From positions 1 to 39,364 of the forward strand of contig JACPVQ010000155.1 in assembly GCA_016191645.1 (NCBI GenBank): 39,364 bases of DNA. The letters are read 5' to 3'. Of the stretch, positions 3,020 through 38,092 are shown in pieces. The stretch is from Candidatus Solibacter usitatus. GTDB taxonomy: Bacteria > Acidobacteriota > Terriglobia > Bryobacterales > Bryobacteraceae. A program made the position numbers and the translations under genes. Below the pieces are notes generated by a model. It saw nothing but the letters and a program-made list of their open reading frames with translations, was not told where the DNA came from and ran no database searches. The first letter of the stretch is position 1. Each line of letters starts with the position of its first letter.

Positions 3020-3238
3020 ATGGGCAAACCAAGGGTTCTCAAACCACGCGAAGTCATCGCGATACTCAACAAGTTGGGCTTTGTCGAAGTCCGCCAACGA
3101 GGTTCACACAAGCAGTTTCGTCATCCGGATGGCCGCGGAACGACAGTTCCAGCTCACACGGCGAGGGACATTTCGCCGGTACTTCTCCGCCAGATAGCAA
3201 GAGATGTCCGCATGACCGTCGAAGAGTTGTTTGCGTGA
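3020..3238 (+). CDS. hicA: HicA-type mRNA interferase toxin
   Basis: This 72-residue protein has the double-stranded RNA-binding-like HicA fold. It begins with KPREVIAILNKLGFVEVRQRGSHKQF, and the catalytic histidine is H30 in the GSHxxF motif. A second conserved segment, TTVPAHTARDISPVLLRQI, follows. HicA cleaves mRNA independently of the ribosome and is held inactive by HicB. All family residues look intact, so the toxin should be active. The stop codon abuts the stop of the convergent MFS gene with no intergenic base, leaving no room for a terminator between them. Confidence 0.9.
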   Translation: MGKPRVLKPREVIAILNKLGFVEVRQRGSHKQFRHPDGRGTTVPAHTARDISPVLLRQIARDVRMTVEELFA

Positions 3239-4507
3239 TTACGCCAAGTCGGCTGCGACGCTGATCTTTTCCGCGCGATAGCCGCCCTGGGAACGGTAGT
3301 AAACAAACAGCCCCCCGAAGATCACCGTGAGAATCACCGGCAGCACGCCCACATAGCGGAATGCCGCCGCGGGACCGGCCGTGTCGTACCAACCGCCCAT
3401 CATCGGGAGCACGAAGGCCACCGCAAGATTTCCCGTACCGCCCATGATGGCGAGCAGCAGCGCGCCGCCGCGCGGGAACAACTCGCTTGTGATTCCAAGC
3501 ATCGTCGGCCAGAAGTAAGTTTTCCCTATGCCGAATATCGTTGCGGCAACAAACGCTTCCGCCGGGCTCTTGACTCCGCCGAGCAGAAACAATCCGGCGG
3601 CGGCGAACAAGGCGGAGAGAGTCATCAATCCGAACGGCGAGAATCTATGCGCCAACGGACCGCCGAAGAATCGCAGTACGAACATGAGACCCGCGGTGTA
3701 GACCAGGATCAAGACGCCTTGCATGCCGGTCAATTGCGTAATCAACGACGACACCCATTGATCGGGACCCAGTTCCGAGGCCGCGGTCATCCACATGCAC
3801 ACCCACAACAGCAGGAACATTGGACGGTATGCCTCGCGCAGCATTTGCGAATTTGAGATACCCGCGGCCACGCGCTCCGTCGCGGGGAAATGTTGGCCCC
3901 GAATCATGAAGAGATAGATGGCGGCGGGAACCATCACCGTGGCCAGCTTCACCTGCCAGCCGAATGTGATCTGCGACGGGCTAAGGCCCGGCGCGTCCAG
4001 GCCCAGGATCTTCGTCAGCGCGAACGCCAGCAGCCCTCCGATAATCAGGCCGCCGGGCCACCAGGCGTGCAGAATGTTCATGCGATGTGTTTTGTCATTG
4101 GGGAACAGCGTCGCGCACAGCGGATTGATTACACCTTCCACCAACCCTTGCGCCAAGCCGAGGATCAGCATGCAGGCATACAGGATCAGCGTCCCTGTGT
4201 CGCTAAACAGACTGGACACTGCGCCGGAGGGACGGGGTGCAAATAGAATACCCACCACGCCAACCACATAGGCCCAACCCGAAATCGCCAGCAGCCTGCG
4301 CATGCCGAACAAATCCACCAGCGATCCGCCGATGATAATCGAAACCGTGAATCCCCAAAACGCCGGACTCAGCACCATGCCCAACTGCTCTTTGTTCAAA
4401 TGAAAATCCGCGCCGAGAGCGTCGAGAATATCGCCGCGGATGGAAAAAACCATTGAGGTCGTGATAAGAGCCAGACAACTGGCCAGGAATAGCCGCCCAG
4501 GATTCAT
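3239..4507 (-). CDS. Major facilitator superfamily transporter
   Basis: This is a 422-residue inner-membrane carrier with about 12 hydrophobic helices. It shows the MFS loop 2-3 motif as GGSLVDLFGMRRLL near residue 60, and the family-like stretch LVEGVINPLCATLFP followed by NILHAWWPGG. The second half has the matching segment around the ALAHRF loop. The substrate is not evident; similar proteins in Acidobacteria and Planctomycetes are annotated as sugar or sugar-acid carriers. It converges with hicA and stands alone on the minus strand. A TACACT box 7 nt before the ATG and no ribosome site suggest leaderless expression. Confidence 0.85.
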   Translation of the reverse strand: MNPGRLFLASCLALITTSMVFSIRGDILDALGADFHLNKEQLGMVLSPAFWGFTVSIIIGGSLVDLFGMRRLLAISGWAYVVGVVGILFAPRPSGAVSSLFSDTGTLILYACMLILGLAQGLVEGVINPLCATLFPNDKTHRMNILHAWWPGGLIIGGLLAFALTKILGLDAPGLSPSQITFGWQVKLATVMVPAAIYLFMIRGQHFPATERVAAGISNSQMLREAYRPMFLLLWVCMWMTAASELGPDQWVSSLITQLTGMQGVLILVYTAGLMFVLRFFGGPLAHRFSPFGLMTLSALFAAAGLFLLGGVKSPAEAFVAATIFGIGKTYFWPTMLGITSELFPRGGALLLAIMGGTGNLAVAFVLPMMGGWYDTAGPAAAFRYVGVLPVILTVIFGGLFVYYRSQGGYRAEKISVAADLA

Positions 4508-36881: not shown

Positions 36882-37504
36882 CGCCTAGCCCCACACTTAC
36901 TGAGATAGGCGTATTCATCACTACATCTTGGCCAAGCATCCGCGTCGATGACAGGTTAGTCCCTGGAATCATTCTTGGAGATCCCGCTGCCATCGAAATT
37001 CTGTACGGCAAAGTGCAAATTGTCGTGCGCGTTTGTATTCGCAAGCACCTTCGTGAGCAAGATCCGGAGGACCTGGTTCATGAGGCGCTAATCGGCATTG
37101 TGGAATGCATTCAGAGTGGTGGATTGCGAGATTCCGCGGCCTTGGGCGCGTTTGTCGAAGCTGTAGTCAGGCGGCAAGTTGCGGGCAAGATCCTGGTTCA
37201 GATTCGTCGCCGGAAGTACATTGACGCAGGCCGGCACACAGACGATCTGTCGTGCCTGCTGGATAATCCCGAAGCACAAGCGAGTCAAAGCGAGAGGAGC
37301 CGCATGATGCGGCAAGGTCTACTGCAACTGGTGCCTCGTGATTCCGAAATCTTGACGCGTTTCTACTTACATGATGAAGGACGCGAACAGATTTGCCGCG
37401 AGATGAAACTCACGGCAAATCAGTTTCGACTGTACAAAACGCGGGCAAAGGCGCGGCTTACGGCCTGGACACAATCCGCCAATTTGGCGCTTACCGCTTC
37501 TTAA
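36839..37504 (+). CDS. Sigma-70 family (ECF-like) factor
   Basis: A 221-residue protein. Residues about 47-135 resemble sigma region 2 (GDPAAIEILYGKVQIVVRVCIRKHLREQD, then PEDLVHEALIGIVECIQSG). Residues about 165-215 resemble region 4, with a helix-turn-helix (SEILTRFYLHDEGREQICREMKLTANQFRLYKTRAKARL). No anti-sigma gene is adjacent. The GTG start is weak: no ribosome site is visible and the first 30 residues overlap a palindrome and look unlike a sigma factor, so the true start may lie further in. It converges with the peroxiredoxin gene, overlapping by 14 bp. Confidence 0.75.
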   Translation: MIQEIVLKSYRHLVPPSPTLTEIGVFITTSWPSIRVDDRLVPGIILGDPAAIEILYGKVQIVVRVCIRKHLREQDPEDLVHEALIGIVECIQSGGLRDSAALGAFVEAVVRRQVAGKILVQIRRRKYIDAGRHTDDLSCLLDNPEAQASQSERSRMMRQGLLQLVPRDSEILTRFYLHDEGREQICREMKLTANQFRLYKTRAKARLTAWTQSANLALTAS

Positions 37505-38024
37505 TGCGGCTGCAAGCCATCTCCGCGCCGCTGATATCCACAGCGGTGTTTCCTTCTTCGATGTAGGCAATCTTGCCTTCCATATCGACAAGAAACGTCG
37601 CGCGATTGGCGATGCCGCGCTCTTCCATCAACACGCCATACGATTTGGCAACGGTTCTTTTGGCGAAATCGCTGAGCAGCGGGAAGGAGGCTTCCGTCTG
37701 CTTCGCGAACACGCCGAGACTTGGAGTGTTGTCCGTACTCACGCCGAACACCTGCGTGTCCATTCCTTCAAACTTTGCGATACCAGCCTGGTATCCTTTC
37801 ATTTCCTTTGTTCAACCACCGGTAAAGGCAGCGGGAAAGAAGGCCAGAATGACATTCTTCTTCCCCTTGTAGTCGGAAAGCTTCACGGGCTTTCCGGAAG
37901 TCGAGGGAAGAGTGAAGTCAGGCGCGGCGTCACCCACCTTAAGGTGAGTCTTGGGCGGCGCGTTTTGAGCGAGCAGACCGGCAGCCGGAATCGCGGCAGC
38001 CATCAGGAATTTGCCTCGGGTCAT
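37491..38024 (-). CDS. Peroxiredoxin with selenocysteine at the peroxidatic position (UGA recoded)
   Basis: A 177-residue AhpC/TSA-type peroxiredoxin with an export signal ([20 protein letters not shown]). It has [25 protein letters not shown], then FFPAAFTGG, an in-frame TGA at 37812-37814, then [28 protein letters not shown] and [15 protein letters not shown]. The TGA is residue 71, exactly where the peroxidatic cysteine of the TxxC motif belongs. Both parts are in the same frame and together make a full-length protein. A perfect hairpin 16 nt downstream fits a bacterial SECIS. The enzyme would reduce peroxides with selenocysteine. The alternative is a nonsense-mutated pseudogene. A strong AGGAGG ribosome site precedes the ATG. 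Confidence 0.88.
37779..37795 (-). promoter_or_regulatory. Candidate bacterial SECIS hairpin
   Basis: In the mRNA the arms GAUACCA and UGGUAUC pair perfectly around GGC, starting 16 nt after the UGA; the loop lies 23 nt after it. With a 6-bp stem the loop is AGGCU, close to the AGGUCU loop of the E. coli fdhF SECIS. The distance is within the range used by SelB. There is no bulged U in the stem. Confidence 0.7.
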
Positions 38025-38092
38025 AGATCCTCCTGTTAGAAGGTATCAATGAGAGACGCTATCCTGCAACCCCACCGTCTACGCTCCCGTCA

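What the first reader, a model, noticed from the sequence alone, without database searches (positions are those of the whole stretch)
37491..38024. Peroxiredoxin with UGA in place of the peroxidatic cysteine and a SECIS-like hairpin
Seen directly: two same-frame segments of one peroxiredoxin are separated by a single TGA (37812-37814) at the TxxC position, giving TGG-U-TKEM. A perfect 7-bp hairpin (37779-37795) starts 16 nt after the UGA, with a loop like that of fdhF. Known: peroxiredoxins are among the bacterial selenoprotein families. Inferred: the enzyme uses selenocysteine and is exported, given its signal sequence. Standard gene calling would split or truncate it.
Basis: partly seen in the sequence, partly recalled or inferred. 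Interest (0 to 1): 0.85.

Follow-up and report, generated by a model that had tools for sequence, protein, structure and literature searches.

The report
Exported selenocysteine peroxiredoxin of Acidobacteriota
This bacterial gene, which looks cut in two by a stop codon, almost certainly makes one peroxide-destroying enzyme in which the "stop" is read as selenocysteine; the same gene with its RNA signal recurs in many related bacteria, so it is a solid example of a known kind of selenium enzyme.

Summary
It is not a nonsense pseudogene: of 110 homologous loci fetched from related genomes, 93 have UGA at this site and 17 Cys. In the main family the hairpin after the UGA is conserved with compensatory changes, and Ala at codon +9 is GCT in 66 of 66 cases against 12% elsewhere in these genes; Cys forms mostly lose the hairpin. 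The genome holds SelA and a UCA tRNA-Sec. SelB and SelD were not found in this 79%-complete assembly, but each is in 10 of 11 same-genus genomes. Main-family UGA forms occur in 0 of 8 genomes lacking tRNA-Sec, SelB and SelD and in 80 of 113 others. Sec-Prx with TxxU is an established selenoprotein family. This branch adds an AhpE-like rather than PrxU-like protein, a signal-like N-terminus, an invariant C-terminal Cys (probable resolving residue) and about 11 Sec/Cys switches. Actual Sec insertion, export and the catalytic cycle remain inferred.

The parts
37491..38024 (-). AhpE-type peroxiredoxin gene, 177 codons plus TAA, UGA at codon 71
   Evidence: single TGA in frame, PF00578 6e-37, nearest solved sequence and fold M. 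tuberculosis AhpE
37812..37814 (-). UGA (selenocysteine) codon at the peroxidatic position of TxxC/U
   Evidence: same site UGA in 93 and Cys in 17 of 110 fetched homologous loci
37779..37795 (-). bacterial SECIS-type hairpin GAUACCA-GGC-UGGUAUC, 16 nt after the UGA
   Evidence: covariation on 83 distinct sequences; codon bias
37965..38024 (-). signal-peptide-like N-terminus, residues 1-20 ([20 protein letters not shown])
   Evidence: 12-residue hydropathy 2.07; low-confidence tail in the structure model; no predictor run
37512..37514 (-). codon of invariant C-terminal Cys171, candidate resolving cysteine
   Evidence: 81 of 81 sequences; 100 residues after the Sec and the only Cys in the protein
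38029..38034 (-). Shine-Dalgarno-like AGGAGG, 4 nt before the ATG
   Evidence: sequence read

Best explanation
The gene encodes one selenoprotein peroxiredoxin. Translation starts at 38024; at codon 71 the hairpin just downstream recruits SelB with Sec-tRNA(UCA), so UGA is read as selenocysteine and translation goes on to the TAA that ends at 37491. The product has the AhpE fold. Selenocysteine-71 takes the place of the peroxidatic cysteine and attacks the peroxide; the invariant Cys171 in the C-terminal helix probably resolves the selenenic acid to a selenenylsulfide, which a thioredoxin-fold reductant then reduces. The protein is probably exported. Shown here: the frame, the conserved UGA, the RNA-level constraint, tRNA-Sec and SelA. 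Inferred: actual Sec insertion, export, the resolving role of Cys171 and the reductant.
For: UGA at the same site in 93 of 110 fetched homologous loci, Cys in the other 17, and in 60 of 80 named loci, Cys in 20 (the sets overlap). dN/dS after the UGA 0.04-0.11 in 7 of 8 genus-level comparisons, the eighth saturated. Hairpin: 3 core pairs kept in 83 of 83 distinct UGA forms of the main family, 5 of 7 pairs with changes on both sides, covariation score above all 500 shuffles and all slid versions. GCT at Ala +9 in 66 of 66 (background 12%); Tyr TAC/TAT linked to Gly/Asp three codons later, 78 of 80. SelA 405 bits, tRNA-Sec 78 bits with UCA anticodon. Main-family UGA form in 0 of 8 genomes lacking tRNA-Sec, SelB and SelD against 80 of 113 others (Fisher p 1e-4, relatedness ignored). 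AhpE fold, pLDDT 91.7, TM 0.81 (Cys modelled at 71).
Against: SelB and SelD are not found in the window's own assembly. Against synonymous recodings only 22 of 86 UGA forms fold unusually well, median z -0.85. The outer stem pairs are often unformed: columns 20-36 unpaired in 43 of 83. On the tree the Tyr/Gly-Asp covariation gives only about 4 concordant independent pairs (none discordant), not significant alone. The 7 UGA forms of other subfamilies lack this particular hairpin. No Rfam family matches. No protein-level evidence.
Confidence: 0.93

Rival explanations
1. A peroxiredoxin pseudogene inactivated by a nonsense mutation.
For: An in-frame TGA splits the ORF; SelB and SelD are not found in this assembly.
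Against: The same TGA at the same codon in 93 of 110 fetched loci and Cys in the other 17, with no TAA or TAG at that codon; purifying selection after it; covarying hairpin.
Confidence: 0.02
2. UGA is read as an ordinary amino acid genome-wide (altered code), not as selenocysteine.
For: The frame is open if TGA is a sense codon.
Against: TGA ends 5 of 20 long ORFs of the window (ORFs picked by length, not all checked as genes); Cys, not Trp or Gly, is what replaces it in homologues; a tRNA-Sec with UCA anticodon is present.
Confidence: 0.01
3. Selenocysteine is inserted in relatives, but this organism has lost SelB/SelD, so its copy is a dying relic making only a 70-residue fragment.
For: SelB and SelD not found in the window's genome.
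Against: The assembly is 79% complete in 267 contigs; SelA and tRNA-Sec are present; UGA, hairpin and strong constraint are intact. None of the 8 genomes lacking tRNA-Sec, SelB and SelD showed the UGA form; 4 had the Cys form and for 4 no copy was fetched.
Confidence: 0.04

Closest known systems
Bacterial Sec-containing peroxiredoxins (Prx, TxxU), as listed in passages of PMC1088965, PMC1794560, PMC9312934 and PMC13188914
   Same: AhpC/TSA fold, Sec at the TxxC position, hairpin with G in a small loop just after the UGA
   Different: Here an AhpE-like branch of Acidobacteriota with a signal-like N-terminus and a C-terminal Cys; Table 1 of PMC1794560 (2006) counts 5 Cys-to-Sec events and no Sec-to-Cys event for Prx, while here Cys forms are scattered within a mostly Sec family
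PrxU (NCBIfam NF040737; the Eubacterium acidaminophilum Sec-peroxiredoxin of 2001 is known to me only as a reference in PMC13188914 and from recall)
   Same: Sec-peroxiredoxin, same superfamily
   Different: 65.9 bits against a cut-off of 270: not a member; its model has 233 positions, this protein 177 residues
Mycobacterium tuberculosis AhpE (Rv2238c), 1-Cys peroxiredoxin
   Same: nearest solved sequence (1e-27) and fold (TM 0.81; 38-40% identity in most top rows)
   Different: AhpE uses Cys and is titled 1-Cys; here Sec plus an invariant C-terminal Cys
E. coli fdhF SECIS (recalled, not compared by a tool)
   Same: short hairpin close behind the UGA with GG in the loop
   Different: different stem sequence; 3-nt loop GGC; no Rfam match

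Membership tests
Sec-containing peroxiredoxin (TxxU) | AhpC/TSA peroxiredoxin domain | tested here: met
   PF00578 6e-37; AhpE fold
Sec-containing peroxiredoxin (TxxU) | in-frame UGA at the peroxidatic position, with Cys in homologues | tested here: met
   93 UGA and 17 Cys of 110 loci
Sec-containing peroxiredoxin (TxxU) | bacterial SECIS: hairpin just after the UGA, G in a small apical loop | tested here: met
   feature as described in passages of PMC1088965; bSECISearch itself not run
Sec-containing peroxiredoxin (TxxU) | SelA and tRNA-Sec in the genome | tested here: met
Sec-containing peroxiredoxin (TxxU) | SelB and SelD in the genome | tested here: inconclusive
   not found in the 79% assembly; each present in 10 of 11 same-genus genomes
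Sec-containing peroxiredoxin (TxxU) | selenium actually in the protein | not testable with these tools
   needs mass spectrometry or selenium labelling
PrxU (NF040737) | score above the curated cut-off of 270 bits | tested here: not met
   65.9 bits
AhpE (1-Cys) subfamily | AhpE-like sequence and fold | tested here: met
AhpE (1-Cys) subfamily | no second conserved cysteine | tested here: not met
   Cys171 in 81 of 81 sequences; whether it resolves the Sec is untested

The most novel reading that the evidence does not exclude
An exported, AhpE-type Sec/Cys peroxiredoxin is an ancestral selenoenzyme of a whole class of Acidobacteriota, with selenocysteine as the starting state and cysteine taking over repeatedly (about 11 switches on the tree, at least 4 forced by well-supported branches). 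It works by a selenenylsulfide between Sec71 and a C-terminal resolving cysteine, outside the cytoplasm.
Probability: 0.55. Interest if true: 0.6.

Novelty: new member of a known kind. Interest (0 to 1): 0.45.

Why it matters
A standard-code ORF list splits this gene, so an antioxidant enzyme whose main-family UGA form was seen in 80 of the 121 related genomes searched is likely to be truncated or missed in annotation. The family gives a dense natural series of Sec and Cys forms, including tandem Sec+Cys copies and a Cys form that still carries the hairpin, suited to testing why selenocysteine is kept or lost at a peroxidatic site.

Tried and rejected
Pseudogene and altered-code readings were tested and rejected. 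Extra TAG stops reported for some relatives were looked at in 5 loci. In L097 the TAG lies 103 codons after the Sec site, at the gene's end. In L127, a Cys paralogue, it lies 46 codons before the Cys. In L089, L102 and L120 the best alignment held no TAG; for L089 that alignment is the first of two tandem copies, so its second copy, the one reported with a TAG, was not checked. In what was checked there is no sign of UAG recoding. Rfam found no SECIS family. The synonymous-recoding energy test was weak (22 of 86); the codon-level test was much stronger. The window's neighbours gave no functional link; a conserved downstream partner exists only in some relatives. The listings of paper searches showed no paper on this acidobacterial subfamily, and one acidobacterial genome paper (PMC5900883, term search only) has no word beginning 'selen'; the library holds only open-licence PMC papers, and earlier surveys count acidobacterial selenoproteins without my seeing which ones.

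Rows dropped: L127 from the hairpin counts by column, the linkage count, the genome table and the tree, though it is one of the 17 Cys; L123-L126 and L128-L130 (7 UGA loci of other subfamilies) from the main-family counts, used only as tree outgroup and comparison; 3 duplicate hairpin sequences (86 to 83); 36 of 182 rows removed as duplicates before the tree. For 23 of 121 genomes no copy was fetched.

Full report
What is there. The minus strand from 38024 to 37491 reads as one 177-residue protein interrupted once, by TGA at codon 71. It matches AhpC-TSA (PF00578, 6e-37). Its nearest solved sequence is M. tuberculosis AhpE (1e-27). The AlphaFold model (Cys placed at 71, 81-sequence alignment, pLDDT 91.7) has AhpE as its best Foldseek match (TM 0.81). 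The stop lies exactly at the peroxidatic cysteine. A Shine-Dalgarno-like AGGAGG precedes the ATG. The hairpin at 37779-37795 is as described.

Not a pseudogene. All 121 genomes searched (the window's and 120 relatives) gave some peroxiredoxin match, and most of the strong matches in the capped list contain one TGA. I fetched 110 loci from that list (30, 80) and read the best match in each: 93 have UGA and 17 Cys at the site, one of the 17 (L127) being a distant paralogue. A separate scan of named genomes, by a protein pattern that does not cover the Sec site, kept the best 80 of 578 confirmed loci: 60 UGA, 20 Cys. Their titles are nearly all Acidobacteriota, many Bryobacterales; L171 (Micropepsaceae) and L176 (Acidimicrobiia) carry other labels, which I did not check further. 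The two sets overlap; without duplicates the main family has 146 sequences, 121 UGA and 25 Cys. dN/dS in the 60 codons after the UGA is 0.04-0.11 in 7 of 8 genus-level comparisons; the eighth was saturated. TGA ends 5 of 20 long ORFs of the window.

The hairpin is an RNA signal. In 83 distinct main-family UGA forms the three core pairs hold in all 83, 5 of 7 pairs show changes on both sides, and the covariation score (0.242) exceeds all 500 shuffles and every slid version. Codon choice shows that the constraint acts on RNA: Ala at +9 is GCT in 66 of 66 (12% elsewhere in the same genes), Gly at +10 is GGT in 58 of 61 (19%), Asp there is GAT in 22 of 22 (39%). A synonymous change TAC/TAT at +7 goes with Gly/Asp at +10 in 78 of 80. 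Allowing for relatedness, about 4 independent concordant pairs and none discordant remain, too few for significance alone. Among 16 Cys forms the three core pairs hold in only 6, 10 and 8; L040 (also L165) is the clear exception, a Cys codon with the whole hairpin kept. Weaker results: only 22 of 86 fold unusually well against synonymous recodings, the outer stem is variable, and the 7 UGA forms of other subfamilies lack this hairpin.

Machinery. The window genome has SelA (405 bits) and tRNA-Sec with UCA anticodon (78 bits). SelB and SelD are not found above their cut-offs (the best SelB match is 163 bits on an ORF of 380 residues, probably EF-Tu). The assembly is 79% complete. Of 11 same-genus genomes 10 have SelB, 10 SelD and 10 tRNA-Sec. 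Of 8 genomes lacking tRNA-Sec, SelB and SelD, none showed the UGA form, 4 have the Cys form, and for 4 no copy was fetched. Of the 113 others, 87 have a UGA copy, but in 7 of these it belongs to other subfamilies, leaving 80 for the main family (Fisher p 1e-4, relatedness ignored); 7 had only Cys among fetched copies, and for 19 no copy was fetched. One search lists TGA-bearing matches for at least 6 of those 19. SelD itself carries a TGA in many of the relatives listed (not counted).

Evolution. On a quick tree of 153 rows, Sec/Cys needs at least 11 changes, 4 of them forced by starred branches. UGA forms hold nearly all the branches nearest the outgroup root, which suggests that Sec is ancestral and was lost repeatedly; direction is inference, and the 7-row outgroup was not one clade. 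One locus (L134) has a Sec copy followed directly by a Cys copy.

How it probably works. Sec71 reduces the peroxide. Cys171, in the last helix, is invariant in 81 of 81 aligned sequences; a Cys lies within the last 30 residues in all 146; the sister groups L123-L126 and L128-L130 have no Cys there. In the window protein it is the only Cys, so it is the natural resolving residue; whether within or between subunits cannot be told, as I had no coordinates of the single-chain model. The N-terminus is hydrophobic in 138 of 143 scored members, and 29 of 143 have a twin-arginine-like motif, so the enzyme is probably exported; no dedicated predictor was available.

Comparison. Sec-containing Prx (TxxU) is an established selenoprotein family: I read passages of PMC1088965, PMC1794560, PMC9312934 and PMC13188914. 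PMC1794560 already counts 4 selenoproteins of 3 families in Acidobacteria, and a passage of PMC12013277 lists 3 known selenoprotein genes in an Acidobacteriota strain; I could not see which. By NCBIfam the protein is not PrxU (65.9 of 270 bits) and reaches the cut-off of none of the 15 families matched. I therefore file it as a new member of a known kind, an AhpE-like, probably exported branch.

Noticed in passing
L134:2501-3031 and 3159-3728; L182:2402-3016 and 3020-3622: Tandem peroxiredoxin copies: in L134 a UGA copy is followed directly by a Cys copy; L182 also has a second, stop-free copy behind the UGA copy.
   Followed up: partly
L134:3637-5529; L197:450-3311: A membrane protein with an Rce1/CPBP-type protease domain (PF02517, tested in L134; the L197 protein looks alike by eye) lies downstream on the same strand; the L197 ORF cluster spans 34 of 81 loci examined but has no member beside the window gene.
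   Followed up: partly
L040 / L165: A Cys (TGC) form that still carries the complete SECIS-like hairpin: a recent Sec-to-Cys change, or an assembly error.
   Followed up: no
L128, L129, L130: Another UGA peroxiredoxin branch with a hydrophobic N-terminus and a Cys four residues after the Sec instead of the C-terminal Cys.
   Followed up: no
L123-L126: A further AhpE-like UGA branch (TPVU motif) with no Cys after the Sec; 2 of the 3 scored lack a strong hydrophobic N-terminus.
   Followed up: no
G097:C197:6211-8094 and G097:C17:10596-12518; G096:C2; G092: One relative has two full-length SelB matches; two relatives have two tRNA-Sec matches each.
   Followed up: no
window:36839-37504 (+): ECF-type sigma-70 gene (TIGR02937, 47 bits) runs convergently into the peroxiredoxin gene and overlaps its end by 14 bases.
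   Followed up: no
window:38105-39139 (+): 344-codon ORF upstream of the peroxiredoxin gene, on the other strand, with no match in Pfam or NCBIfam; may be spurious.
   Followed up: no
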